Source: a virus. Taken from it: 42,372 nucleotides of DNA. The position numbers and the translations under genes were made by a program. The notes below the pieces were generated by a model. That model was not told the DNA's origin. It worked only from the letters and a program-made list of their open reading frames with translations, and ran no database searches. Shown here in pieces: positions 4,634-41,221 of the stretch (position 1 is its first letter; every line of letters begins with the position of its first letter). Location: the IMG/VR virus record IMGVR_UViG_3300020215_000033, positions 1 to 42,372 of that record, one strand, 5' to 3'.

Positions 4634-4646
4634 GCAAGGAGAAATC

Positions 4647-5300
4647 ATGAAAGAGTACCACAAGATCAACACCTGTTGGATGCGGGATCAGAAAGGAAAC
4701 ATCATCGAGGGCCAATGGTCTGACCCGGTATTCGGATACCTTGCCAATAACGAATGGGTATTTACTGAGAAGGTTGACGGGACCAATATCCGGGCCTACT
4801 GGGATGGGAATAGGGTTACTTTTGGGGGCCGGACGGATGCGGCATCTATCCCGACATTCTTGCTTAATCGCTTAAACGATCTATTCGATACCACGCCAAA
4901 GCGCCAGAAGTTTTCGGAGGTGTTCGGCCAAGATCACGCCTGCCTCTATGGCGAGGGCTACGGGGCAAAGATTCAGAAGGGCGGCGGTAACTACAAGGCT
5001 GATGGCGTTGACTTCACGCTGTTTGACGTGGCCGTAGGTGATTGGTGGCTAATGCGTAAGGACGTTGAGGACGTTGCCGCAAAACTGGGATGCGACATCG
5101 TTCCGATTCTTGGGAACGGGACGCTCCATGATGGCATTGCTAGAACGCGGAACGGCTTCAATTCGACGTGGGGAGATTTTATTGCCGAAGGGATTGTAGC
5201 CAGGCCGGTAGTTGAGTTCAAGACCCGAAAGGGTGAGCGGGTTATAACCAAGATCAAGCACAGAGATTTTAAATTTCTTGGGGCCACTGTAGCCGCCTAG
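4647..5300 (+). CDS. RNA ligase family protein
   Basis: A 217-residue nucleotidyltransferase of the phage RNA ligase group. Motif I is EKVDGTNIR with the AMP-accepting lysine at about residue 42; later motifs are visible as GEGYGAKIQ, DFTLFDV, EGIVARP and the C-terminal TKIKHRDF (motif V, K-x-K). It would join nicked RNA (or RNA in RNA-DNA hybrids), typically to repair host-cleaved tRNA. ATG 4647 has SD AAGGAG. A longer reading frame upstream overlaps the previous gene and lacks an SD. There is no polynucleotide kinase nearby. Its presence beside a phage ribozyme that leaves a 5'-OH end is notable. Confidence 0.8.
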   Translation: MKEYHKINTCWMRDQKGNIIEGQWSDPVFGYLANNEWVFTEKVDGTNIRAYWDGNRVTFGGRTDAASIPTFLLNRLNDLFDTTPKRQKFSEVFGQDHACLYGEGYGAKIQKGGGNYKADGVDFTLFDVAVGDWWLMRKDVEDVAAKLGCDIVPILGNGTLHDGIARTRNGFNSTWGDFIAEGIVARPVVEFKTRKGERVITKIKHRDFKFLGATVAA

Positions 5301-5318
5301 TTCTAGGCTAGGAGAATC

Positions 5319-5579
5319 ATGGCAACCAGATACGAGGAAACCTGTGACGCCTGCGGAAAAGTGACCAAGGGATTCTATTCCGAGGCGAAGTGGGGCGATA
5401 AGGAGTACGCGGAGAACTGCTGGACGGTTCGCGTGGATAATTCCTGGCTGGAGGATGTCGAGGAGGGGAAGCTCCTGCGGCATGATCGCGAATTAAGCCT
5501 AGACGCCTGCCAAGGATGCTCCAAGATTCTCGCTGAAGCAATTCGGGCGAAGGTCGTAGAGATTAAGGCTAATCGTTAA
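5319..5579 (+). CDS. zinc-ribbon protein
   Basis: An 86-residue protein with CDAC near the N terminus (residues 9-12) and CQGC near residue 66, a split zinc ribbon. The middle is acidic (WLEDVEEGKLL). SD TAGGAG precedes ATG 5319. Its TAA overlaps the next ATG, so it is coupled to the NinG-like gene. Similar four-cysteine proteins often bind nucleic acid or act as small antagonists of host enzymes; function not known. Confidence 0.65.
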   Translation: MATRYEETCDACGKVTKGFYSEAKWGDKEYAENCWTVRVDNSWLEDVEEGKLLRHDRELSLDACQGCSKILAEAIRAKVVEIKANR

Positions 5580-20756: not shown

Positions 20757-21353
20757 ATGAAAAAGATTCTGTGTCTTGGCCTTGTGGCCTTGTTGTTCTG
20801 CATTAGTGCGAAGGCCGTTAAAGCGATTCAAGTAAATACCGCTGCCGCTGTGGTGGCTGACTCGGCCAACACGCCAGAAACGGCGGTTTACCGGGATACT
20901 TCGGGGAACTTCCAGGCTGGCACTGTTACCCTCCAGGAATTGACCGTTACCAATGATGTGAGCATTCAAGATGGACTTTCCGTAACCGGCAGCGTGGTTA
21001 CGGGCCTCCTCAATGTCTCCACGAACGTAATTACGTCAATGACGATGCACATAGAGGCGGAGACAAAGAGCTCAACGGCGGCCGTTATAACGGCATTTTC
21101 TGGGCAGACAGCAGACCTGTTGCGTGTTAGAGATAGTTCCCTAAATCCGCTCGTCCGCATCACGCCGAATGGGCGCATGGCTCTTTGGTCGCGAACCAGG
21201 GCACAGATCGACGCTCTGACCCCTGATGTTATCGGCGAGATGGTGTATTGCTCGGACTGCTCGGTTAAGAATGTGTGCATTTCCACGGGGACGGCCGTTT
21301 CCCAGTGGATGAGGATGGACCTAGCGACGGCTGGCTGCGGAACTGGAAACTAA
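20757..21353 (+). CDS. exported fibre/tip-like protein with Sec signal peptide
   Basis: A 198-residue protein with a clear signal peptide (MKKILCLGLVALLFCISAKA, then VKA) and SPase I-type A-x-A sites. The mature part has ADSANTPETAVYRDTSGNFQ and AGTVTLQELTVTND, repeats typical of trimeric tail-fibre shafts. The end RTRAQIDALTPDVIGEMVYC resembles fibre-tip segments. It has several C-terminal cysteines (YCSDCSVKNVC). A signal peptide on a fibre-like virion protein is unusual. It could be an exported surface protein rather than a virion part. Confidence 0.65.
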   Translation: MKKILCLGLVALLFCISAKAVKAIQVNTAAAVVADSANTPETAVYRDTSGNFQAGTVTLQELTVTNDVSIQDGLSVTGSVVTGLLNVSTNVITSMTMHIEAETKSSTAAVITAFSGQTADLLRVRDSSLNPLVRITPNGRMALWSRTRAQIDALTPDVIGEMVYCSDCSVKNVCISTGTAVSQWMRMDLATAGCGTGN

Positions 21354-21366
21354 TACAGGAGAAGAC

Positions 21367-21786
21367 ATGAAACTAAAAGAACAGATTTCCAAAACCTTTA
21401 GCGGGTTTATTGCGTTTTGCATTTTGCAATTCGCGATTCCCGTCCTTGCGGATACCGGCCATGAGGGTGCGGTACGAACTGAGCGCGGCAGCTATGCCGA
21501 TACCTTCAAGGTTACGGGTTCGTCTACCACTGGCACCAATATCTTTTCGGTCAAGACAAAGAGGGCCGACGGTACGTGCTTTAACAACACGTCCTCGACG
21601 GTATGGGTTAGCACAAACGCGACGACCCAGCACAATACGACCCATAGCAATATCACGTTCGGCATCCCGGTCCTATCTAGCTCCACGTTCCCGCTGGATG
21701 GGAATTTCACCGGGTCCCTGGCGATGACCTGCGACATCGGCGTTGCCTCCTGCGAGTTCCGATGCCTTGAGGGGTTAGTCCAGTAG
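21367..21786 (+). CDS. exported small protein, fibre-cluster, signal peptide
   Basis: A 139-residue protein with N-terminal basic residues (MKLKEQISKT) and a long hydrophobic run ending FAIPVLA|DTG, a plausible Sec signal. The mature part is a beta-rich Thr/Ser-rich domain (TFKVTGSSTTGTNIFSVKTK) with cysteines near the end (MTCDIGVASCEFRC). SD CAGGAG precedes ATG 21367. No family recognised. The similar neighbour at 21796 suggests the two are paired fibre-like proteins. Confidence 0.6.
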   Translation: MKLKEQISKTFSGFIAFCILQFAIPVLADTGHEGAVRTERGSYADTFKVTGSSTTGTNIFSVKTKRADGTCFNNTSSTVWVSTNATTQHNTTHSNITFGIPVLSSSTFPLDGNFTGSLAMTCDIGVASCEFRCLEGLVQ

Positions 21787-21795
21787 GGAGAGACA

Positions 21796-22284
21796 ATGAA
21801 AAATATCATTTCCGCAGCTTTACTTGCCTTCCTGTCTAGCACCGCTCACGCTGGTCTCGGTGATGGCTCCAGGAAAAATCAGGTGGACAACATCGCCATC
21901 GCAATCGGGACGAGCGACCAGAGCCTTACTTCTACGGCCTACACGGGGGTCGATGGAAGCACGGTAACGCTCACGGTCGGGCCCAATAGCAGGGTTCTCC
22001 TAGAGTTAAGCGCGACCCTTCGGAATGATACCGACGGTCAAGGGTGCTTCGTTCAACTAATGCAAGGAAGCACTGTTTTGAATACTGGAACAGTCGGATC
22101 GTGTGGAGTGTCTGTCGCGGCGGCAAACGCTAGGCAGCACTGTGGAATCACCAAGATAACCAGCGTCCTAGCGGCTGGGACCTACAGCTTCTCCGTGATG
22201 TACAAGGCCACAGGAGCAAGCACCTGTATTTTCAACGGGGCAGACGCAAATTGGACCTTTATCGCGGAGGAGTTGCGTTTCTAA
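21796..22284 (+). CDS. exported small protein, fibre-cluster, signal peptide
   Basis: A 162-residue protein with signal peptide MKNIISAALLAFLSSTAHA|GLG and a beta-rich mature domain (VTLTVGPNSRVLLELSATL) that looks like a small jelly-roll or fibre-head domain. Cysteines occur in regular pairs (GQGCFVQ, VGSCGVS, QHCGITK, STCIF), which suit an oxidising compartment. Ends taATG into the next gene. Function unknown; the location among virion genes suggests a receptor-interacting or decorating role. Confidence 0.6.
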   Translation: MKNIISAALLAFLSSTAHAGLGDGSRKNQVDNIAIAIGTSDQSLTSTAYTGVDGSTVTLTVGPNSRVLLELSATLRNDTDGQGCFVQLMQGSTVLNTGTVGSCGVSVAAANARQHCGITKITSVLAAGTYSFSVMYKATGASTCIFNGADANWTFIAEELRF

Positions 22285-28232: not shown

Positions 28233-28876
28233 TTTTATCAACCCTTCAGCAGTTGGTCGCTGACTTCGTGGGCGACCCCAATCAAACCCGGTTTTCCGCT
28301 ACGCAATATGTTGACGCCATAAACCGAGCCCAGGAACAGTTTATTCTGGATTCAAAATCGCTTTTCAAATATGCGACTCATACGTCCACGGCTGGGACTT
28401 CCACCTATAGCCTAACCACGGATTTCCTTTTAGAGGAATCCATAACCTACAACGGGATTTATTTAAAGCCAGTATCAAGACGTACTCTAGCGGTTCTTTA
28501 CCCGGATACGGATTGGACACTGCTGGAAGGCACTCCGACCATGTACATGATTGATCCGGAGCAGATTAACCGCGTATTCCGTCTTATACCGATACCCCAA
28601 GAAGCAAAAACTGTTGTTTTGAAATACCTCGCGCTCCCTAGTGAGGTATCCGCCGCTACCGATGTTGTTTTAAACGCGGCGACCCTTATGACTCAGTTTC
28701 ATATGGGTGTAGCCGCATTCGCAGCCTGGATACTGCTGAATTACGAAACCGCCACGCCGGAGATCGTGGAAAAAAAGCGGGAAATGCAGAAAATCTATCA
28801 AGACTACGTAAACAAGGCTATTGAGAATTACGGAAACACCAAGAGCGAGCCTCTCCGGTTCCGCCCCATAAAGTGA
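28229..28876 (+). CDS. head-tail adaptor-like protein
   Basis: A 215-residue protein from GTG 28229, placed after the glycosyltransferases and directly before the tail hub. Its sequence (LQQLVADFVGDPNQTRFSAT, YVDAINRAQEQFILDSKSLF, TSTAGTSTYSLTTDFLLEES) matches the pattern of podovirus adaptors (P22 gp4/gp6-like) that bind the portal. It is helical with a beta-rich middle. No signal peptide. Confidence 0.7.
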   Translation: MILSTLQQLVADFVGDPNQTRFSATQYVDAINRAQEQFILDSKSLFKYATHTSTAGTSTYSLTTDFLLEESITYNGIYLKPVSRRTLAVLYPDTDWTLLEGTPTMYMIDPEQINRVFRLIPIPQEAKTVVLKYLALPSEVSAATDVVLNAATLMTQFHMGVAAFAAWILLNYETATPEIVEKKREMQKIYQDYVNKAIENYGNTKSEPLRFRPIK

Positions 28877-31713
28877 AAGGAATACTTCTCGCCTTATCCC
28901 TAGCTATCCCCGCTTCAGCCCAGCAGGGGAGCGTCGTTATTGACCGCTTCGGCGGGCTGAATGACTCCGAGTCCCCGGCAGTCATTGCCAATCATGAAGC
29001 CCAAGACGCGCTAAACGTAGAGGCCAACCTAAACGGGACCGCCCTACTCAAGCGCCAGGGTTTCACTCGCGAAGCCTCTCTAACCGTCACGACCGCCCCC
29101 GTGACGGGAAGTTTTTTCTTCACGATTGATTCCGGCGATAACCTGGCAATCGTTTGCCATGATCGCTATTGCGCCAAGTCAGTAAACGGCGCGGCCTTTA
29201 GCAACTTTATATCCAGTGCCGGAACTTCTGCCGGAGTGCCTACGCGGTGGTCGTTTGTGGCGGTTGATGGCGATTTATACGGAGCCAATGACCGGCGAAA
29301 CTCTATTTTAAAGTACGACGGGATTACCGCTTCCTGGCCCATTGGTCCGCCCGCTGGCTCTCTAATTGAATTGAGTGAGGGGCGCCTGATTGTGGCAGAC
29401 ACGTCTGCCAATCCCGGTCAAGTGTGCTACTCGGCTGGGGGGGACTACACCAATTTTACTACGGGAACCGATTCGGAGGACGCATGGTGCGATGACCTCG
29501 GCGCGTATGGCGACCGCATAACGGGGATCAAGTGTCACCTGGGTCGATGCCATTTCTTCAAGCAAAACAGTATCACAACGTGCCAGGTTGGCGACCAATA
29601 CACCACGGTTTGCTCCTTAACTTCTAGCAACATAGGGACGAACGACCCCAACTCGATTACAGCGGCTCCGGATGGGATTTACTTTCGGGGCAATGACCGC
29701 CACTTCTGGAGACTGGGAGATAATGGGCTAACCCTACTTTCTCAGCGAGTTTCAAACTTCGTTAAGAATCAAATTGGCGGCTCTCAAAAGAGCAACACTC
29801 AGACGACGGCGGCCGACTGGGACGCCGGTGTCCAGGTGCCCACGGGGACATTTAGCACGGCTTTCGCGAATGGAGCAATCAATAATTCCAGTGTAACTCT
29901 TGTTGATACCTCGCAGTCTGATTTCAACCTAGGAACAACTATAGATTCGGGGCTTTCCCTTGGCGATGTTCCGGGAGCCGTCCAGCTTTCATCCGTGGTC
30001 TTTCAAGACAATTTCGGAGACGGAAACTTTACTTCCGGCCCTGTGTGGACCGACGCCTCCGGCGGCAACTGGCAGGTTTCTAGCGAAAGGCTAGTAAATT
30101 CTATCGGAAACGGTGAGATTTACGCCTCGCATACCATAAGTACAGGTTCATGGCAGCTAGACGCCGGAATCAATCCCACGTCCGGGAATACTCTTTTCGT
30201 TAAGTTTATCGCCACGGGGACAACCCTGACGGATACCGGGTATGCCCTTGTTTTGCTTCATGGCGGCTCCGTTCTTACCGTGTCAATAAAGAAGTATCCC
30301 GCTGATACCGTTGTAGCTCAAATAGGCGATTACATACCGATTAACGGTGTCGATTCCCTGAATACGTACAGAATCGTAAGAAACGCATCCGGCAACTTTC
30401 AGGTTTACAGCAGTACCGGGCTAATCTTCAGCGGGACAGATGCGACGTATAACACGCCGGGGAAGATCCTCCTAAAATGCGGCACCGGGAACTGTAGCGC
30501 CGATAACTTTTATTTCTTCAGATACAAGGGGCTCCCCGAGGACGGGACACAGACGTTTGTTTCTCGGGTATTTGATACCGGCTACTCTACGACGGTTGGC
30601 TATAACTTCGAGGCCAATATCTCCAGTTATACCGATGCGGAGATAACAAACATTAAATTACAGCAATCCGATACGCATAACGGCACATTCCTTTCCGTCG
30701 GCGGTGTAAGCAATCTTGGGCTAGGCGAGTTTGTGCCCGCGACAAAGCGGTACTGGCGCTATCAGCTTAATTTTAACACCACAGTTGCGACAAAGACCGC
30801 CCAGGCTTTTGACGTAACGATGCGGGCGGCAAGCACGGGAACTTATCGGACGCAATGCATACAGCCAAACTCTAGCATCTCCTCATGGGGAATTTTAAGC
30901 TGCTCGGAAAGCAATATCGGCTCCGGGTCATTCGTTTACTACTCAACCTCTGCTGCAACCTGCGGGGCCTTGCCTACGAGCAATCCGACATCGTGGCAAA
31001 CGTCCGTCACTAACAACGCTACGCTCTCTATAGCAACCAATACGGCGGTTTATATCGGATTTAGGTCTCTCTTGGGCAACGCGACCGACCAGGCCCGAAT
31101 AGAGTCTTGCACCCTCTACTGGACCGAGGGGACAGCGGCCCAGCCCGTTTGGGGCGCGTATGATAGCCGATCAAACTCTATCTACTGGACCGCTACCACT
31201 ACAGCCGCGACCCAGGGCGACCGGGTTCTAAAATACGACCTAAACCTAGACCAGTTCTTCCCGTTCGACCTGCGGGCTACGGCCCTGTCGTCTATAAACA
31301 ACTCTATTTACTTCGGCTCCTCCATAGGCGGCTACTGGAACCGCTACGCCCCCGGAGGGGTTCATACCGACAACGGCTCCAACATCTCAGCTTACTGGAA
31401 GTCCAAGGACTTCGGAGGCGCTAACCCCTTCCAGGAAACTATATTTAACCGCCTATCTCTAGTAGCCAGAAACCAGACCACAGGGAGCATGACCCTTACC
31501 CACAGACTCAGTAGCGGGCAGAGTGGGAGCCATACCGTATCCCTTTCGACTACTTCAACGCTGCCTTACATTCGGGATAACTACAACATCCCGCTCACGA
31601 GCCCGCATAACTTCATGAGCGTGCAAGTAAGCAACAATTCCAGCACCCCGTTCGAGGTGCTTGGGATCAAGTTGGACTACAACACTTCTGGATGGCGACC
31701 GGTGAATCCGTAG
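28873..31713 (+). CDS. P22-gp10-like tail hub/stabilisation protein with signal peptide
   Basis: A 946-residue protein. After residue 23, IDRFGGLNDSESPAVIANHE, QDALNVEANLNGTALLKRQG and a long beta-propeller/beta-rich body match podovirus tail stabilisation/hub proteins that plug the portal channel. Residues 1-16 (MKGILLALSLAIPASA, then QQGS) are a Sec signal peptide. There is no other ATG, GTG or TTG start before the conserved region, so the signal belongs to the gene. Many cysteine pairs follow (IVCHDRYC, IKCHLGRC, TCQVGDQYTTVC), fitting an oxidising compartment. GTG overlaps the previous TGA. Unusual for a virion hub. Confidence 0.75.
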   Translation: MKGILLALSLAIPASAQQGSVVIDRFGGLNDSESPAVIANHEAQDALNVEANLNGTALLKRQGFTREASLTVTTAPVTGSFFFTIDSGDNLAIVCHDRYCAKSVNGAAFSNFISSAGTSAGVPTRWSFVAVDGDLYGANDRRNSILKYDGITASWPIGPPAGSLIELSEGRLIVADTSANPGQVCYSAGGDYTNFTTGTDSEDAWCDDLGAYGDRITGIKCHLGRCHFFKQNSITTCQVGDQYTTVCSLTSSNIGTNDPNSITAAPDGIYFRGNDRHFWRLGDNGLTLLSQRVSNFVKNQIGGSQKSNTQTTAADWDAGVQVPTGTFSTAFANGAINNSSVTLVDTSQSDFNLGTTIDSGLSLGDVPGAVQLSSVVFQDNFGDGNFTSGPVWTDASGGNWQVSSERLVNSIGNGEIYASHTISTGSWQLDAGINPTSGNTLFVKFIATGTTLTDTGYALVLLHGGSVLTVSIKKYPADTVVAQIGDYIPINGVDSLNTYRIVRNASGNFQVYSSTGLIFSGTDATYNTPGKILLKCGTGNCSADNFYFFRYKGLPEDGTQTFVSRVFDTGYSTTVGYNFEANISSYTDAEITNIKLQQSDTHNGTFLSVGGVSNLGLGEFVPATKRYWRYQLNFNTTVATKTAQAFDVTMRAASTGTYRTQCIQPNSSISSWGILSCSESNIGSGSFVYYSTSAATCGALPTSNPTSWQTSVTNNATLSIATNTAVYIGFRSLLGNATDQARIESCTLYWTEGTAAQPVWGAYDSRSNSIYWTATTTAATQGDRVLKYDLNLDQFFPFDLRATALSSINNSIYFGSSIGGYWNRYAPGGVHTDNGSNISAYWKSKDFGGANPFQETIFNRLSLVARNQTTGSMTLTHRLSSGQSGSHTVSLSTTSTLPYIRDNYNIPLTSPHNFMSVQVSNNSSTPFEVLGIKLDYNTSGWRPVNP

Positions 31714-31721
31714 GAGGTTTT

Positions 31722-32465
31722 ATGGCTAAAAACGACCGAGCGATTAGAGAGCAGTTCATGAGGGTCTTGGGCCGAGATGCCAGGCCCGACGAAATCGAGT
31801 TTTTCAATGGCTTCTTGGCTGAGAACGACCTGACGCCCTTCGACGTTGGCGAGATCATCGCCGGACACCCAGAGGCTCAGCAGACCAGGCTTAACCAACA
31901 GACCGACCAATACGGCCAGATGTTAGGTAAGTACGACGACCAAATTCTAGGCCAGGCACAGAAGACTCTACAGGGCCAATTTGCCCGCATGGGACGGCCT
32001 TCTAGCACGGGCTACACGGCGGCTTTTTCTAACGCGGCCCGCGACGTTGCCATGGCCCGCCAGGGACAGCTTGCACAGTTCTACGGCGGTGGGCTCCAGG
32101 GTCTACAGAATCAGTACATGGCCGCTGGCTCCTCCCAGGTTCCACGGGCCCTTGGACTCCGCGATGAAAGGCGGCAGCGGGGATGGGCAATCGATGACTA
32201 CTACAGGGCTCAGAACGACTACAACTCAGCCATGCGTGGCCAATCAACCCGCAACCTCCAGGGTTCTCTGCTTAACGCGGGAATAAACCTTGCCGCCCGT
32301 GGAGCCGCTGCCCTTGGCACTAAGGGCATGTCGGAGTTCGGCCAAGCCGGGGCACAGCAGAGCGGAGCTGGACTTGGACCGTATAACCCTGGTGGCGGGT
32401 TTAACTACGGCTACAAGCAGCCCGGAGTTCAGGACTTTTACAACATCCCCTACGCGAGGTACTAA
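31722..32465 (+). CDS. ejection/internal virion-type protein
   Basis: A 247-residue protein from ATG 31722 (SD TAGGAGG). Residues 10-46 form a compact helical module (QFMRVLGRDARPDEIEFFNG, FLAENDL, VGEII). The rest is Gln/Gly/Ala-rich (GQFARMGRPSSTGYTAAFSN, LGQLAQFYGGG-like stretches), typical of small internal proteins delivered with phage DNA. It sits directly after the tail hub and before two other likely ejection proteins. The N-terminal module recurs in the exported protein at 39913-40542. Confidence 0.6.
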   Translation: MAKNDRAIREQFMRVLGRDARPDEIEFFNGFLAENDLTPFDVGEIIAGHPEAQQTRLNQQTDQYGQMLGKYDDQILGQAQKTLQGQFARMGRPSSTGYTAAFSNAARDVAMARQGQLAQFYGGGLQGLQNQYMAAGSSQVPRALGLRDERRQRGWAIDDYYRAQNDYNSAMRGQSTRNLQGSLLNAGINLAARGAAALGTKGMSEFGQAGAQQSGAGLGPYNPGGGFNYGYKQPGVQDFYNIPYARY

Positions 32466-32467
32466 CC

Positions 32468-33367
32468 ATGGCTCCCGAATTTCGACCGCCGTCCTTCGTC
32501 CAGCCTAAACAGTACGACGCAATCCCCGCTGGCATCGACCAAATCTTTGAGACTTACCAGCGGAGCAAGCTTCTAAAGCAACAGGGGTTAATTCAGAATG
32601 CCCAGCTTGCCGCCCAGGGCATTGACGTTGGGGCGCTCCAGGCCGACCCGTTTGCCGAGTACCGGAGATTGGGGCAGGACTACCTTTCCAAGCGCCAGCG
32701 TGAAAGCCAGATGCAGGACGTTGATATGCGGCTGAAGGAATCGGAGATAGTTAAGAATCTCCGCGAGCCCAAGCCGACGATGTCCAACCCTGGCCCGAGC
32801 ATGGAAGGGAAGATTCTTCCTCCTAATTCCGTCATGGCCCTGAATGAAGGCAAGAACGTGGCCCGACTATTGCCCGACGTTGAGCAGGCCCTGCAACAGA
32901 GTGAAGCCATTATGGGACCAGTTCAGGGGCGCAAGGGCAGCATGAACCCCTATGACACGAATGCACAGACCGTTGACGCTAGATTTAGAACGGCGTCCCA
33001 GGCCTTCGGGCGCTTCATGGAGGGCGGCGTGCTTCGCAAAGAGGACGAGGACAAGTATCGCAAGATGTTCCCCCAACTCAGCGATACGCCGGATGTGGCA
33101 AGAAACAAGCTGTCCATCGTTCGCCGGATGCTCGCTCAGAAGTACGAGGATGACAGGATTACTCTTGGGAAGTCAGGCTATGACGTTACCGGATTCGAGG
33201 CACTCTCTATCCCGGCGTCCATCTTCGACAATCCCGCTTCGCAGGGTTCCCGGCGAGGGGAATCGCTCGCCGATGCCGTCCGTGCTGAGAAGGCCCGGCG
33301 TGCTGCCGCGCGGGGTATTGGGGGTGATAGCAATATGCGTGCCGCTATCGCGCCTGGAGGGTTCTAA
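32468..33367 (+). CDS. ejection/internal virion-type protein
   Basis: A 299-residue, mainly helical protein. Residues 4-16 are EFRPPSFVQPKQY, followed by a long helix (IFETYQRSKLLKQQGLIQNA). The middle has LLPDVEQALQQSEAIMG and MNPYDTNAQTVDARFRTAS with a C-terminal helical domain. Position after the hub and composition suggest an internal ejection protein. The EFxxPxFVxPxQY piece recurs in the exported protein at 39913-40542. Confidence 0.6.
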   Translation: MAPEFRPPSFVQPKQYDAIPAGIDQIFETYQRSKLLKQQGLIQNAQLAAQGIDVGALQADPFAEYRRLGQDYLSKRQRESQMQDVDMRLKESEIVKNLREPKPTMSNPGPSMEGKILPPNSVMALNEGKNVARLLPDVEQALQQSEAIMGPVQGRKGSMNPYDTNAQTVDARFRTASQAFGRFMEGGVLRKEDEDKYRKMFPQLSDTPDVARNKLSIVRRMLAQKYEDDRITLGKSGYDVTGFEALSIPASIFDNPASQGSRRGESLADAVRAEKARRAAARGIGGDSNMRAAIAPGGF

Positions 33368-34647
33368 TGCCAGGCCTAGAGAAGCTTTCCGATGCCGAGC
33401 TAGACGCTTTGGAGGCTGGGGACTTAAGCAAGCTATCCGACGCGGCGCTTGATGCCGTAGAAGCTTATGAATCCTCCACGCCCCAGGTTATCGCTTCGGG
33501 CTCATCTACTAGTTCATTGGAGAGGTTCGGACGTGGCCTGATCGGGCAGGAAAGAGAAAAGGGCTTCACTCTGGCAAACCTGCAAGAGGAGACGGGGCAA
33601 AACGCTGGCCCAATGGCTGGAGCCTCAATCGGAGCGGCTACGGGTGCCGCTTACGGAGTCCCTTTCGGCCCAGTCGGTATCGCCGCTGGGACTATTATCG
33701 GCGCTGGGGTTGGAGCTTTTGGCGGGCGCATGGCCCAGACTGGTCTAGGGAATGTGGCAAATGTCGTAGGTGCTGATGCGCCGTATAAGCCTCTTGGGCA
33801 GGCGACTAAAGAGGCTGCCGTAGAGGGCGGGCTTAATGCCGCGTTCGCTGGTATTCCGTTTGCGGCAAAGGGAGCCGGGGCACTAGCAAAGGCAGGAATC
33901 GGGGTCGAGGCTGGCCCACTGGCAAGGAAAGCGGGAGCCCAAATTTTGCGGGCTGGCCCCGCAATTCCCGAGAAGTATGGCGAAGCGATGCTTAAGGATA
34001 TGAGCATCCTAACGCGGGCACAACCTCGAGATGTGATGAGCAAATCGTACCAGGCTTTTCAAAACTACACGGGGCTGAAGGGGCTGGACGAGATTGCCGG
34101 GGAACGGGCCAAAGCGTGGACCGCCGGCGAGCTTTACGAGACTGCCCTAACTACGGCCAACAACATAAAAAGCGGGGCACAGGTTTCCCCCCAAGAACTG
34201 TACACGGCCAGCCAGGCCGAAAATCAGCTTAACCGGCTCGCGCGTGCCGGGAATCCTGACGCGATGGCAATGCGTGGCGCAAAGAGCCTTGAGCAGGCCG
34301 GGAAAGCTGCTGATGAGGCTCTGGAAAAGATTTACCCGGAATATAAGGGACTGAGAAAGGGACTTTTTGAAAGCAAGGTCCGCGAGCAGATTGGGAGTGC
34401 CTTACCGCTAAACAAGAATACTAGCCCCAATGTTCTTAGAACGTGGTCCGCTGGTGTAATGGCGGCAAGAGCCATGGAAAGCATGAACCCTCTTGGGCTT
34501 GTCGCGGCTCCGTTTGTTTCCCCTGCCGCCTGGGGGCTTGGCCTTCGCGGGGCCTACGCTGCAAGCAAGGTTGTCCCGCCCATTGCTCGTTCTAGCGGAG
34601 CTGCGGCGCTCCAGCAGTACTACATGAGGCAACCAGCTACACCGTGA
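33367..34647 (+). CDS. large internal/ejection protein with glycine-zipper segment
   Basis: A 426-residue protein that opens with two LSDAxLDAxEAG-type repeats (LEKLSDAELDALEAGDLSKL). These short repeats are seen in other podovirus internal proteins. Residues about 80-130 are a glycine/alanine-rich hydrophobic zipper (GASIGAATGAAYGVPFGPVG and IAAGTIIGAGVGAFGG) that could form a membrane pore or channel. The C-terminal half is helical (LEQAGKAADEALEKIYPEYK). Likely forms part of the DNA ejection conduit. The stop overlaps the next GTG. Confidence 0.6.
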   Translation: MPGLEKLSDAELDALEAGDLSKLSDAALDAVEAYESSTPQVIASGSSTSSLERFGRGLIGQEREKGFTLANLQEETGQNAGPMAGASIGAATGAAYGVPFGPVGIAAGTIIGAGVGAFGGRMAQTGLGNVANVVGADAPYKPLGQATKEAAVEGGLNAAFAGIPFAAKGAGALAKAGIGVEAGPLARKAGAQILRAGPAIPEKYGEAMLKDMSILTRAQPRDVMSKSYQAFQNYTGLKGLDEIAGERAKAWTAGELYETALTTANNIKSGAQVSPQELYTASQAENQLNRLARAGNPDAMAMRGAKSLEQAGKAADEALEKIYPEYKGLRKGLFESKVREQIGSALPLNKNTSPNVLRTWSAGVMAARAMESMNPLGLVAAPFVSPAAWGLGLRGAYAASKVVPPIARSSGAAALQQYYMRQPATP

Positions 34648-35327
34648 TCCTCGCCCTCCTCCTATCCCTAGTCCTCCCCGTTCGGGCCCAAGAGCTATCA
34701 AGCGGCCCGGTGAGGAGTCTTTTTAGAGATACGAGACTAGACACGATAGAGCAATTGGTTCGTGAGGTGCGGTCAGGTAATGCTGACCTAACAGGAACGC
34801 CGACATTCCGCAATGGGGCAAATCTAGGCGGCAGCACGTTCGCGGGGGATGCGACGTTTTCCGGGAGTATCACAAACACTGGATCAGTAACCAACAGCGG
34901 TAACGTGGTCCACAATGCCTCGACCACCTTCAACGGCGGGGTTTTCGGAAACGTCCATATCACCACAAGGTCCGTTAGGGGAACGGGGATTAGCTGGGGC
35001 TCGTCGGGCCTTGTCTCCAAGAGCACGCTAACCGTAATAGGCAGCACAATTACTATCCATGCAAACATTCACATCCGGACTTCTGGAGCGGCCAACATTT
35101 ACGCCGGATACCTAATAGACGGGCGCTGCCCATCTTCCTGGACTTGTTCCGGGACCTGCACAAGCAATCAAAACCCATGGGGAACAAATAACGACACTCG
35201 CGCATCAATGACCATAGACACTGTGGAAACCGTTGCCCATGGGTCGCATACGGTGAGTATTTGGGCGTGCGCGGATTCAGGGACAACGGCAAACGGCGCT
35301 TACGATTTTAGGTTAGAGGCGAATTGA
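34644..35327 (+). CDS. exported fibre-like protein with signal peptide
   Basis: A 227-residue protein from GTG 34644 (GTGA overlap). MILALLLSLVLPVRA|QE is a Sec signal. The body has fibre-type repeats (GTPTFRNGANLGGSTFAGDA, TFSGSITNTGSVTNSGNV) typical of tail-fibre shafts, then a small domain with CPSSWTCSGTC and WACADSG. As with 20757, a signal-bearing fibre-like protein in the virion operon is unexpected. Could be a secreted adhesin or a virion part. Confidence 0.6.
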   Translation: MILALLLSLVLPVRAQELSSGPVRSLFRDTRLDTIEQLVREVRSGNADLTGTPTFRNGANLGGSTFAGDATFSGSITNTGSVTNSGNVVHNASTTFNGGVFGNVHITTRSVRGTGISWGSSGLVSKSTLTVIGSTITIHANIHIRTSGAANIYAGYLIDGRCPSSWTCSGTCTSNQNPWGTNNDTRASMTIDTVETVAHGSHTVSIWACADSGTTANGAYDFRLEAN

Positions 35328-36052
35328 TGCGGGGCGTCTTTATTCTTATTGCATTCTCCTTAGTCTGCCCGGCTCCGTGCCGTGCGGAAAGCGGCTTCGG
35401 GTTCTGGATTGAGGAGGACTATCCGAGATCAGATGATGGCCGGACTTTCGCCGCTGGAGTAGATTGGGCTTCCTGCGGTGGTCGGCCATGGTCCGCTGAG
35501 TACTCCCTGCTAACAAACCAGGCAATCGGCTCAAGGGCTGATTTTGCGACGGTTAAGACAAGAATACTCAATGGTGAATCTACCGAGCTTTGGCTAGGCG
35601 GCGGCGTTTCCGGTGCCCTGGGTGGTAAAGAGTTGCAGGTGCGGGTACACAAGGCTCTAGCCTCTGGCGAAGGCACAGCAAAGGCTTTGGAGTATGGCGT
35701 TGCTCCCAGAATCGCCCCGTGGGTAACTCTTAATCGCAACCCTAAAGAAGTCCTAGGCTTGAGATACACCCTTAACTGGGCTCCTCATATCCTCTCCTCG
35801 GCACAAGTGGGGCCAGCTATCCGGCTTGGCCCATTCCAACTATCCGGCGGCTATCTCTGGGGGACTTGGCTGTCTCCCGGGATGGCTGACGTCCTGGGTC
35901 AAGGTTGGTGGAGTGAGGTTTCATGGAAGTACAAGAGGCTCGAAGCGTCCATAGAAGCGTATCCGACTTCTCGGCGCGGGCTTCCAAGCAATCTCTTTGT
36001 CTGGCGTGTCGGTGTGGCTCTCGGCGGCAAATGTGCGGGCAACTGCCCCTAG
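35327..36052 (+). CDS. exported protein, possible outer-membrane beta barrel
   Basis: A 241-residue protein from ATG 35327 (tgATG). The signal peptide MRGVFILIAFSLVCPAPCRA|ES is followed by alternating polar/hydrophobic strands (LGLRYTLNWAPHILSSAQVG, SEVSWKYKRLEASIEAYP, NLFVWRVGVALGG) as in outer-membrane barrels. It resembles lambda Lom only in being a phage-encoded exported surface protein. Cysteines at both ends (CPAPC, GGKCAGNC). A surface-remodelling or exclusion role is inferred. Confidence 0.5.
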   Translation: MRGVFILIAFSLVCPAPCRAESGFGFWIEEDYPRSDDGRTFAAGVDWASCGGRPWSAEYSLLTNQAIGSRADFATVKTRILNGESTELWLGGGVSGALGGKELQVRVHKALASGEGTAKALEYGVAPRIAPWVTLNRNPKEVLGLRYTLNWAPHILSSAQVGPAIRLGPFQLSGGYLWGTWLSPGMADVLGQGWWSEVSWKYKRLEASIEAYPTSRRGLPSNLFVWRVGVALGGKCAGNCP

Positions 36053-38602: not shown

Positions 38603-39610
38603 TTAAATCGGGGGTAGCTTTTTGACCGCATCGCCTAGGGATTCTGGGGCCAGATGGGCGTAGATCATCGTTACCAGAATGCTAGAGTGCCCAAGCAACT
38701 TGGACACAGTGTAAAGCGGGACCCCAGCCTGGACTAGATGGCTGGCGTAGGTATGCCGTAGGGTATGTAGGCTCCCCTTAAGCCCAGCGGCCCTTTTAAT
38801 CCTCATAAAGCGCAAAGTCATTGCCAGGCGGCTGGGCCGTTCTCCAAGCACCCAGGGGCCGTCCTGGCGCGTTTTTAGGCGTTTCAGGTGGTCCATAAGG
38901 TCTTCAGGCATAGGCACCCAACGCTCTTTATAGCCCTTTGGGTGCCAGCCGGGCTTATGCGAAACGTGTAGGCGCTCTCGTGCGAAGTCTATATCATCCC
39001 ATGATAGGTGGTACATCTCGGAGCGCCGAAGACCGGCCCTAGCTCCCAGCAGGATCACGGTCTTATACAGGTCTTCGCTCTCATTCAAGAGCGCTTTGAG
39101 TTCCGCCGGGGTATAGAATAGTGGTGCTTTATTGGTTAGCTTTAGCTTCTTAACTCCCCGCCATACTTCAGCCTTGAGATACCCCCATTCATGGGCCTTC
39201 TTAAGCAACGCCTTAATTGCTCCCATCTCGCGATTGATCGTTTGGACTCCCTTCCCTTCCCCACGTCTATGCGCTTTCCAGCGTTCTAGTAGCTCCGGTT
39301 TTATCTCAGCTAACTTGTCGGGCTTACTGTAGCGTTCAAGCGAACGTATTGCCATGCGGTCCTGGTAGTGCGTGGCTTCCGATTTGGTTCCCTTCGAGTG
39401 CGCCAGATACTTCTCCTTAAAGGCTTCCCAGGAAAGGCCGCTCGCGACCCAGGATGTCCCCTTGTTATTTTCCTCTTTGATGATGTCTAGGAGCTTTCTC
39501 TCGGCTTCCCGCTTATCCGTATCGAGGGGCCTGCGGACGCGCTTGCCGTCGCCATCATAGAATGTGACGTACCACTTTTTGCTTCCAGCACGTCTATACA
39601 GCTTCGCCAT
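38603..39610 (-). CDS. int: tyrosine recombinase (phage integrase)
   Basis: A 335-residue integrase. The N-terminal arm-binding part (KLYRRAGSKKWYVTFYDGDG) and core-binding SAM-like domain precede the catalytic domain. Catalytic residues are visible: R195 (AGLRRSE), K near 225-228 (HPKGYK), H282-xx-R285 (LHTLRHTYAS), H308 (LLGHSS) and Tyr317 (MIYAHL). It would integrate phage DNA at a host att site and, with the Xis-like protein, excise it. It reads leftward, next to the attP-like repeats, with a small membrane-protein gene immediately upstream. Confidence 0.95.
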   Translation of the reverse strand: MAKLYRRAGSKKWYVTFYDGDGKRVRRPLDTDKREAERKLLDIIKEENNKGTSWVASGLSWEAFKEKYLAHSKGTKSEATHYQDRMAIRSLERYSKPDKLAEIKPELLERWKAHRRGEGKGVQTINREMGAIKALLKKAHEWGYLKAEVWRGVKKLKLTNKAPLFYTPAELKALLNESEDLYKTVILLGARAGLRRSEMYHLSWDDIDFARERLHVSHKPGWHPKGYKERWVPMPEDLMDHLKRLKTRQDGPWVLGERPSRLAMTLRFMRIKRAAGLKGSLHTLRHTYASHLVQAGVPLYTVSKLLGHSSILVTMIYAHLAPESLGDAVKKLPPI

Positions 39611-39611
39611 C

Positions 39612-39830
39612 TTATGGCTTCACTAGCTCCCTAATCCACATAGCCGGGGGCGAGTAGGGGAAGAACGCTACCAGGACGTAGAGGCAGGCAAGTAGAACAA
39701 ACGTTCCACCGAAGACGATGTTGATGACCCAGAAGTTCATTCTAGGCGTAACCCACTTTTGGTAGAAGTGCCCCAAGACCGACGCTATCCCTGCGGCGGC
39801 TATCATCGAAATCCACGATTGATCGGCCAT
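39612..39830 (-). CDS. small membrane protein upstream of integrase
   Basis: A 72-residue protein from ATG at 39830 (SD CGAGG). Segments WISMIAAAGIASVLGHFY and NFWVINIVFGGTFVLLACLY are hydrophobic, so two membrane passes. It overlaps no other gene and sits one base upstream of the integrase start, so the two are probably co-transcribed in the lysogen or on induction. Function unknown; could be a lysogeny-expressed exclusion protein. Confidence 0.6.
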   Translation of the reverse strand: MADQSWISMIAAAGIASVLGHFYQKWVTPRMNFWVINIVFGGTFVLLACLYVLVAFFPYSPPAMWIRELVKP

Positions 39831-39844
39831 GGTTACCTCGTATC

Positions 39845-39860
39845 GCAAATCGCGATTTGC
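39845..39860. promoter_or_regulatory. perfect 16-bp palindrome, candidate operator
   Basis: GCAAATCGCGATTTGC is a perfect palindrome, 15 bases upstream of the membrane-protein/integrase leftward genes. It lies next to TATACT (39868-39873), a possible rightward -10 box. A dimeric repressor would bind such a site. A weak match to a leftward promoter is possible but not clear. Confidence 0.6.
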
Positions 39861-39892
39861 AAAGTGCTATACTCCCTCGTCCGCTTGTTGAG

Positions 39893-39920
39893 GAGCCCCG
39901 AAAGGGGCTCTTTTATTTTA
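39893..39920 (+). terminator. rightward terminator between two leftward genes
   Basis: GAGCCCC (39893-39899) and GGGGCTC (39904-39910) with loop GAAA, followed by TTTTATTTTA: a very strong terminator on the plus strand only. The flanking genes run leftward, so it would end either a small plus-strand RNA starting near 39875 or rightward read-through. Confidence 0.75.
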
Positions 39921-40542
39921 TTGATCCTTCCCGCTTGCCCATCCTAAGAATCTCTTTTATGTCATGCTCTCCAAGATTGTCACCCTTCAAATCATTGTTT
40001 TCGTGCAAGAACCTGAGGAAAAAATTTGTCTCATCCGCGCGCGGATAGCGATTTAGAACCTCGTCAAAGGCGTTTAATATCATTAGCTTTCGCTCATAGA
40101 GCAGGTTCTTTTGAAACTCAATAACTTTGTCCATCCGCCTTATCTCGGCCTCATTTTCTGCGGCTCGCTGCATTGAATCAATGGCCCTATTCATGTCCAC
40201 GTTGTACTGAGCGGGCTTTACAAAGTCAGGAGCCTTAAACTCTAGATTCGACTTGTACGCCGGGGGAGAATAGCTAGGCGCATAATCATTATGTGGGTTG
40301 TTATCGTTGAACCGCTGCTGGTTCGGATGATACCATCCGCCGCCGTAGTTCCTCATCGGCTGATAGTACGACGGGTTATAGGCGGGCTGGCTAGGCGTAT
40401 AGCGCTTGTTGTCCCAGCGGTAAGCGTTGGGGGCGCTTCTTTCGTGCGGCTCAACGTATGTCCCGTCGCTTTTGTAGTAGCCGCCGATTCTTTCGGCGTG
40501 GCAGGGAGCGGAAAGCAAGACGGCCAGTAGTCCTATCCACAT
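39913..40542 (-). CDS. exported protein carrying ejection-protein-like modules
   Basis: A 209-residue protein, ATG at 40542 with GGAGA six bases upstream. Signal peptide: MWIGLLAVLLSAPCHA|ER. Residues 20-98 are Tyr/Pro/Asn-rich and probably extended. Residues 101-113 (EFKAPDFVKPAQY) match residues 4-16 of the virion protein at 32468. Residues 159-182 (FDEVLNRYPRADETNFFLRF and LHEN) match residues 12-35 of the virion protein at 31722. It is expressed leftward, apart from the virion genes, beside the integrase. A periplasmic decoy or superinfection-exclusion factor is inferred. Confidence 0.65.
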   Translation of the reverse strand: MWIGLLAVLLSAPCHAERIGGYYKSDGTYVEPHERSAPNAYRWDNKRYTPSQPAYNPSYYQPMRNYGGGWYHPNQQRFNDNNPHNDYAPSYSPPAYKSNLEFKAPDFVKPAQYNVDMNRAIDSMQRAAENEAEIRRMDKVIEFQKNLLYERKLMILNAFDEVLNRYPRADETNFFLRFLHENNDLKGDNLGEHDIKEILRMGKREGSIK

Positions 40543-40714: not shown

Positions 40715-40945
40715 ATGAAATGTGAGGTTTTGCGAGATTGCGAGATTTTCGCGCACGCCGACTACGGCGGCGATCGAGTTATAGCCGGTAGAAACAATAA
40801 GGGACAGATAAAATACTGCCAGTCGAGCAATATCTGTGGTTGCGTAAAACATACTATTCTTTCCCCTGAGTACCTTTATGTTTTGGCACTGCTTTTGGAG
40901 AAGGACGGTCTTCCGGCAATCCGAGCTTCATTCCCGCCGCTTTAG
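40715..40945 (+). CDS. small Cys-rich protein overlapping the RHH regulator antisense
   Basis: A 76-residue protein from ATG 40715 (SD AAGGAG, eight bases). It begins MKCEVLRDCEIFAHADYGGD and has QIKYCQSSNICGCV, a Cys cluster. Its 3' end overlaps the opposite-strand RHH gene by 92 bases. The good SD and an isolated rightward position support expression, but no family is recognised. Confidence 0.45.
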   Translation: MKCEVLRDCEIFAHADYGGDRVIAGRNNKGQIKYCQSSNICGCVKHTILSPEYLYVLALLLEKDGLPAIRASFPPL

Positions 40946-41171
40946 CCCGGATCGCCAGGAATTTTAGAATTTGGTCGAGGTTGCTTCCCGCCTGAGCCAC
41001 AACTTCATCATTGTTTTCTAGCCATCGCTTAAGAACAACCCGAATCATATCGTTGTAGTCTTCGCGCTCCTCGCGAACGGCGAAGCGATCAATTTTTTCC
41101 CACATAGACGCGGGAAGCGATAGCCAGCGTCTTATCCGTTTTTCCCTTTTCTCCGACGGTGATTGGGCCAT
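40854..41171 (-). CDS. ribbon-helix-helix-like DNA-binding regulator
   Basis: A 105-residue protein with ATG at 41171 (GAGG upstream). RRWLSLPASMWEKIDRFAVR and EEREDYNDMIRVVLKRWLEN have the RHH pattern: a beta-strand, then two helices. A basic, disordered tail follows. It is divergent from the early promoter at 41193-41221, whose dyad (GGACA/TGTCC) it could bind. It is the best candidate for the lysogeny repressor in this genome, since no CI-like helix-turn-helix protein is visible. Confidence 0.65.
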   Translation of the reverse strand: MAQSPSEKREKRIRRWLSLPASMWEKIDRFAVREEREDYNDMIRVVLKRWLENNDEVVAQAGSNLDQILKFLAIRAKAAGMKLGLPEDRPSPKAVPKHKGTQGKE

Positions 41172-41192: not shown

Positions 41193-41221
41193 TTGACACA
41201 TTCCGGACATTCTGTTACAAT
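41193..41221 (+). promoter_or_regulatory. sigma70 promoter of the early operon
   Basis: TTGACA at 41193-41198 and TACAAT at 41216-41221 with a 17-base spacer: near-consensus. Transcription would start near 41228. Confidence 0.9.

What the first reader, a model, noticed from the sequence alone, without database searches (positions are those of the whole stretch)
39913..40542. Leftward exported protein built from pieces of two ejection-type virion proteins: possible superinfection-exclusion decoy
Seen: after its signal peptide and a Tyr/Pro-rich spacer it contains EFKAPDFVKPAQY, which matches EFRPPSFVQPKQY at the N terminus of the protein at 32468, and a VLxRxxRxDExxFFxxFLxEN module that matches the N terminus of the protein at 31722. 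It sits apart, on the opposite strand, beside the integrase. Established: prophages often express surface or periplasmic exclusion proteins. Inference: it may bind the partners of the ejected proteins in the periplasm and block DNA entry of related phages; alternatively it is a rearranged paralogue.
Basis: partly seen in the sequence, partly recalled or inferred. Interest (0 to 1): 0.72.

Follow-up and report, generated by a model that had tools for sequence, protein, structure and literature searches.

The report
Exported phage protein mimicking injection proteins
A temperate phage carries, in the gene block used while it lies dormant, a secreted protein whose front half is a common bacterial surface-type protein and whose back half resembles the ends of the phage's own DNA-injection proteins, so it may keep related phages from injecting their DNA, though this is untested.

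Summary
Gene 39913-40542(-) encodes a 209-aa protein with a signal-peptide-like N-terminus. Its two best matches among the other 79 window ORFs are the N-termini of two adjacent ejection-region proteins (31722, 32468); none of 440 control proteins matches either N-terminus as well.

The protein has two parts. Residues 1-95 are an exported module (phrog_29674) found alone in bacteria, plasmids and phages. A related phage (L078) carries a 103-aa homologue that stops where the extra part begins. Residues 96-209 are a helical extension found nowhere else, holding both ejection-like segments. The second segment is a divergent DUF4214-like module.

The gene precedes a small membrane protein and the integrase. 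An unrelated phage (L133) has the order repressor, exported protein, small membrane protein, integrase, which supports expression in the lysogen.

Most likely this is a lysogeny cassette acting in the envelope. Superinfection exclusion against incoming ejection proteins fits best (about 0.4), analogous to Ltp, SieA and T4 Imm/Sp, but it belongs to none of those families. Decoy action is inference. A recent paralogue is unlikely: there is no DNA similarity and GC3 is lower. None of 49 relatives found through the ejection gene carries it.

The parts
39913..40542 (-). P0001, the 209-aa exported protein of the finding
   Evidence: ORF and translation; ATG preceded by GGAG, stop codon two codons upstream in frame
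40495..40542 (-). Signal peptide-like N-terminus, residues 1-16 (MWIGLLAVLLSAPCHA), type I cleavage likely, no lipobox
   Evidence: sequence inspection; hydropathy; no dedicated signal-peptide predictor was run
40258..40494 (-). Exported module GYYKSDGTYVEPHERSAPN plus Tyr/Pro/Asn spacer, residues 17-95
   Evidence: phrog_29674 E=4.5e-4; plasmid relatives match phrog_29674 at 1e-18; 103-aa stand-alone homologue in L078, local score 228 against shuffle maximum 85
39916..40257 (-). C-terminal extension, residues 96-209, predicted helical (110-165, 169-181, 192-205)
   Evidence: absent from all 71 viral-contig members of the N-part family; AlphaFold2 single sequence, block pLDDT 87-92 at 121-150
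40204..40242 (-). EFKAPDFVKPAQY segment, like the N-terminus of the 32468 protein
   Evidence: exact motif pattern does not recur in ejection genes of IMG/VR
39928..40080 (-). Divergent DUF4214-like three-helix module (ILNAFDEVLNRYPRADETNFF...KREG)
   Evidence: match to 31722 N-terminus; same motif in L006 ejection-position gene, PF13946 E=3e-4; helix pattern
39612..39848 (-). 78-aa small membrane protein (two hydrophobic stretches) between P0001 and integrase; likely true start ATG at 39830
   Evidence: same order in L133 and a 56-aa TM protein after the L078 homologue
38603..39610 (-). Tyrosine integrase
   Evidence: PF00589 E=1.2e-26; phrog_1
40854..41171 (-). RHH/CopG-like candidate regulator upstream
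   Evidence: weak: phrog_7325 CopG-like repressor E=0.053
31722..32465 (+). P0002, ejection-region protein with the N-terminal DUF4214-like module
   Evidence: position and synteny with L006 16988-18034 and the L078 homologue 4646-5551 (score 165)
32468..33367 (+). P0003, ejection-region protein; N-terminus EFRPPSFVQPKQY
   Evidence: C-terminal domain shared by 49 IMG/VR loci, with variable N-termini

Best explanation
P0001 is a lysogeny-module (moron) protein carried with a small membrane protein next to the integrase. Its N-terminal half is a widespread exported module that takes it across the inner membrane. Its C-terminal half is an added helical domain that resembles the N-termini of two of the phage's own ejection-region proteins. 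Most likely the lysogen makes it in the envelope, where the C-terminal domain engages the ejection proteins of an incoming related phage and jams assembly of the DNA conduit (superinfection exclusion after adsorption), perhaps with the small membrane protein as partner. Shown here: the two-part architecture, the non-chance similarity, and the conserved cassette order in an unrelated phage. Inferred: export, expression in the lysogen, binding to ejection proteins, exclusion.
For: The best matches of P0001 in the genome are the N-termini of two adjacent ejection-region genes; 0 of 440 controls reach either score. The exact motif is not common elsewhere in IMG/VR, so its sharing inside one genome is notable. 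P0001 matches its own phage's P0002 module (59) better than that of the related L078 phage (35). A stand-alone N-part homologue ends where the extension begins. In L133 the operon cI-like repressor, exported protein, small TM protein, integrase parallels P0001, 78-aa TM protein, integrase. Known precedents: Ltp lies beside int, with anchor, spacer and an active domain (PMC3952083), and SieA blocks P22 through ejection proteins gp16/gp20 (PMC10883804).
Against: There is no functional evidence. The C-terminal extension has no relative in any collection searched, so no conservation supports a function. DUF4214-like modules are common and Pfam does not call one in P0001. Closest relatives lack the gene. 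The region between the RHH gene and P0001 holds a terminator-like site, so co-transcription with a repressor is not shown in this phage. Several late proteins of this phage group also carry signal-peptide-like N-termini, so export is not specific to exclusion.
Confidence: 0.4

Rival explanations
1. Ordinary lysogenic-conversion (moron) exported protein: the N-part does an envelope job in the lysogen unrelated to phage exclusion, and the C-terminal helices are an oligomerisation or anchoring domain whose similarity to ejection proteins reflects a generic DUF4214-like fold and a Pro-rich linker.
For: The N-part family is widespread in bacteria, plasmids and viral contigs as stand-alone exported proteins; DUF4214-like modules are common; P0001 is not conserved in relatives.
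Against: The two best matches fall on two adjacent genes of the same genome, both at N-termini, above 440 controls.
Confidence: 0.35
2. Virion or late-expressed component: P0001 is made late and interacts with the ejection machinery during assembly or entry.
For: Ejection-like segments; several structural-region genes of this phage group also have signal-peptide-like N-termini, including the stabilisation-type protein 28873 and its L078-record homologue.
Against: It lies leftward beside the integrase, opposite to the late operon; the L133 parallel is in a repressor-integrase operon; it lacks the conserved ejection core domain.
Confidence: 0.12
3. Recent rearranged paralogue: a fusion made by copying the 5' ends of the ejection genes behind an exported gene, with no selected function yet.
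For: Both segments resemble the same phage's genes more than those of a relative; the L078 homologue lies next to the ejection genes.
Against: No DNA similarity (local scores 21 and 17 against null means of about 19); nucleotide identity in the aligned blocks is concentrated at codon positions 1-2 and lowest at position 3; C-part GC3 0.535 against 0.65-0.72 in the supposed sources.
Confidence: 0.08
4. Chance similarity only.
For: Each single pair is weak (shuffle 3/3000 and 28/3000), and the motifs were picked after the fact.
Against: Joint result with controls and adjacency of the two targets.
Confidence: 0.05

Closest known systems
Ltp of Streptococcus phage TP-J34 (superinfection-exclusion lipoprotein)
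   Same: Leftward gene directly upstream of int in the lysogeny module; exported; anchor, low-complexity spacer, small active domain (PMC3952083)
   Different: Ltp is a lipoprotein of a Gram-positive host and, per PMC10883804, its block is overcome by tape measure protein changes; P0001 has no lipobox and no Pfam match; its supposed target is an ejection protein
SieA of phage P22
   Same: Prophage-expressed exclusion whose target is the ejection proteins of short-tailed phages (PMC10883804)
   Different: [quoted passage not shown] P0001 is a predicted soluble exported protein with no sequence relation found
T4 Imm plus Sp
   Same: A small membrane protein plus a periplasmic protein that together block entry of later phages (PMC6832632), as a functional parallel to the 78-aa protein plus P0001
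   Different: T4 is lytic and Sp acts on the gp5 lysozyme; no sequence relation tested or found
phrog_29674 / bacterial exported GYYKSDGTYVxPHxRSxPN proteins
   Same: Residues 1-95 belong here
   Different: Most members are short (about 70-130 aa); none of the 71 viral-contig members has the C-terminal extension
DUF4214 (PF13946) N-terminal modules of ejection-position proteins (L006 16988-18034)
   Same: Three short helices with an L-x-R ... E/G ... F/Y signature
   Different: P0001's copy is below Pfam detection and sits at the C-terminus of an exported protein

Membership tests
phrog_29674 exported module | signal peptide followed by GY-x-x-(D/N)GTYV-x-x-H-x-R | tested here: met
   phrog_29674 E=4.5e-4, residues 5-45; alignment of six members with invariant G, Y, GTYV, H, R; L078 homologue local score 228 against shuffle maximum 85
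phrog_29674 exported module | stand-alone protein ending after the Tyr/Pro/Asn tail | tested here: not met
   P0001 continues for about 114 residues after the point where the L078 protein stops
Ltp lipoproteins | lipobox with lipid-anchored Cys | tested here: not met
   sequence SAPC|H has Pro at -1; no lipobox by inspection
Ltp lipoproteins | Ltp-type repeat domain detectable by Pfam | tested here: not met
   no Pfam family at E<=1
SieA | integral inner-membrane protein | tested here: not met
   no hydrophobic segment beyond the signal peptide in sequence or model; no SieA sequence was compared
DUF4214 | match to PF13946 | tested here: not met
   no hit for the isolated C-part at E<=10; the ejection-position homologue in L006 hits at 3e-4
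ejection-protein family of 32468 | conserved C-terminal core EGGVLRKEDExKY | tested here: not met
   core absent from P0001; present in 49 IMG/VR loci and in 32468
superinfection-exclusion proteins (functional class) | blocks DNA entry of related phages after adsorption | not testable with these tools
   needs host and phage
superinfection-exclusion proteins (functional class) | expressed from the prophage | tested here: inconclusive
   cassette order shared with the L133 repressor-integrase operon, but no expression data and a terminator-like site upstream in the window

The most novel reading that the evidence does not exclude
A temperate phage excludes its own kind with an exported molecular mimic: a host-type secretion module fused to a domain imitating the N-termini of two of its ejection proteins, which acts in the periplasm as a dominant-negative decoy for the assembling DNA conduit.
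Probability: 0.22. Interest if true: 0.8.

Novelty: new variant of a known kind. Interest (0 to 1): 0.5.

Why it matters
If true, it would be a superinfection-exclusion protein that works by imitating the ejection proteins it blocks, and it would give a concrete way to ask which ends of ejection proteins meet in the periplasm. Even if exclusion fails, the cassette 'exported phrog_29674 protein, small membrane protein, integrase' in unrelated phages marks an unstudied lysogenic-conversion module.

Tried and rejected
Homologue searches for the whole protein and for the C-part found nothing in IMG/VR, phages, or whole records of 49 relatives. The genome-contig search hit only the N-part. Fold searches with the single-sequence model gave no usable match (mean pLDDT 59.6). 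Pfam and NCBIfam gave nothing for P0001. The Psychrobacter plasmid hit was a frame with stops and was discarded. A motif-only scan of IMG/VR returned nine matches, near the rough number expected by chance, none convincingly in an ejection gene. Recent duplication was rejected on DNA and GC3. Integrase proximity of the N-part family was checked: within about 2 kb in L092, L093, L133, L134/L136 and L139, out of 22 of 50 records with an integrase. That is suggestive, not a strong enrichment.

Full report
The window is a complete circular phage genome: it carries a 127-base direct terminal repeat and is a virus record of 42,372 bases. The genes read as a temperate short-tailed type phage: terminase, portal and major head protein by PHROGs, a stabilisation-type tail protein and ejection-type genes by synteny with Manatee Spring phages and IMG/VR relatives, then endolysin and integrase.

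Check of the observation. The ORF 39913-40542(-) encodes 209 aa. Each pair alone is modest (3/3000 and 28/3000 shuffles). Real proteins are the better control: among 440 ORFs from related phages, none reaches 59 against the first 60 residues of 31722 and none reaches 50 against the first 40 of 32468; the best control sum is 64, against 109 for P0001. The similarity is therefore unlikely to be chance, though it was picked after the fact and some control ORFs may not be genes.

Anatomy. Residues 1-95 and 96-209 have different origins. The first part is a signal-peptide-like N-terminus plus the module GYYKSDGTYVEPHERSAPN and a Tyr/Pro/Asn tail. It matches phrog_29674. The same family gives exported proteins of about 100 aa on Xanthomonas plasmids, proteins in Bacteroidota-type genomes, and 71 viral-contig loci. 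The closest one, in L078, is 103 aa long, aligns to P0001 with score 228 (shuffle maximum 85) and stops where the P0001 extension begins. L078 comes from a related phage, with homologues of the portal, head, glycosyltransferase, stabilisation and ejection genes. There the gene lies opposite to the late genes, just beyond the three ejection-type genes, and is followed after 9 bp by a 56-aa membrane protein.

The extension, residues 96-209, has no counterpart in any of those family members or anywhere else searched. It is predicted as a long helix followed by two short ones (the model is a single-sequence one and fold searches were empty). It contains EFKAPDFVKPAQY and then a module with the pattern of DUF4214. 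That reading rests on the protein at the same position in the Manatee Spring phage MW202566 (L006 16988-18034), which hits PF13946 at 3e-4, on a motif scan of about 660,000 residues that found a clean pattern only in that protein, in 31722 and in P0001, and on the L078 homologue of 31722, which by eye has two such modules. Pfam itself does not call the module in P0001. The exact EF..P.FV.P.QY pattern does not recur in ejection genes of IMG/VR: nine hits, close to my rough expectation of about five by chance. N-termini of the 32468 family vary widely between phages. P0001 resembles its own phage's module (59) more than the L078 one (35).

The extension is not a recent copy. There is no DNA-level similarity to the two ejection genes, nucleotide identity in the aligned blocks is lowest at third codon positions, and its GC3 is 0.535 against 0.65-0.72 in the supposed sources and 0.695 in its own N-part.

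Setting. P0001 is followed by a 78-aa protein with two hydrophobic stretches and then by the integrase, all leftward. L133, an unrelated phage, has a cI-like repressor, an 85-aa member of the N-part family, a 67-aa single-TM protein and a tyrosine integrase in one tight operon. This parallel is the strongest argument that the cassette is read in the lysogen. In the window itself a terminator-like site and a rightward ORF separate P0001 from the RHH-like gene upstream, so its promoter is unknown. None of the 49 relatives found through the ejection gene carries P0001 or an N-part gene, and none of those with an integrase shows an equivalent exported gene beside it.

Mechanism. Shown: architecture, non-chance similarity, conserved cassette order. 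Inferred: export, prophage expression, binding of incoming ejection proteins, block of DNA entry. Precedents make this reasonable. Ltp of TP-J34 lies next to int and consists of an anchor, a spacer and an active domain (PMC3952083). SieA of P22 blocks injection, and escape mutants map to ejection proteins gp16 and gp20 (PMC10883804). T4 pairs membrane Imm with periplasmic Sp (PMC6832632). P0001 fails the defining features of Ltp and SieA, so it is not filed as a member of either. I put the exclusion reading at 0.4 and the specific decoy/mimic reading at about 0.22. An ordinary lysogenic-conversion protein is nearly as likely.

Noticed in passing
window 20757-21353, 21367-21786, 21796-22284, 28873-31713, 34644-35327, 35324-36052: Six structural-region proteins, including the stabilisation-type tail protein (VKGILLALSLAIPASAQQ), begin with signal-peptide-like sequences. 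Homologues in the L078 record and 18 of 50 related loci also show such late-strand genes. This is unusual for tailed-phage virion proteins.
   Followed up: partly
window 39845-39917 (+): A palindrome GCAAATCGCGATTTGC and an extended -10-like TGCTATACT lead straight into a terminator-like hairpin (39890-39913), which could give an RNA of about 35-40 nt antisense to the 3' end of P0001.
   Followed up: no
window 41193-41221 (+): Strong promoter-like site TTGACA-17-TACAAT with TG before the second hexamer, between the RHH-like gene and the rightward early genes; possible lysogeny switch.
   Followed up: no
window 40715-40945 (+): A 76-aa ORF with a good ribosome-binding site overlaps the 3' end of the RHH-like gene on the opposite strand; no PHROGs match.
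   Followed up: partly
L134 and L136 (IMGVR_UViG_3300028832_000128): One 75.6-kb contig carries two copies of the exported protein, small TM protein, integrase cassette about 37 kb apart, as if two related prophages or a duplicated phage genome.
   Followed up: no
L095 592-1429 (+): Another N-part family member (181 aa) followed by an 87-aa two-TM protein, on the strand opposite to long phage-type genes.
   Followed up: partly
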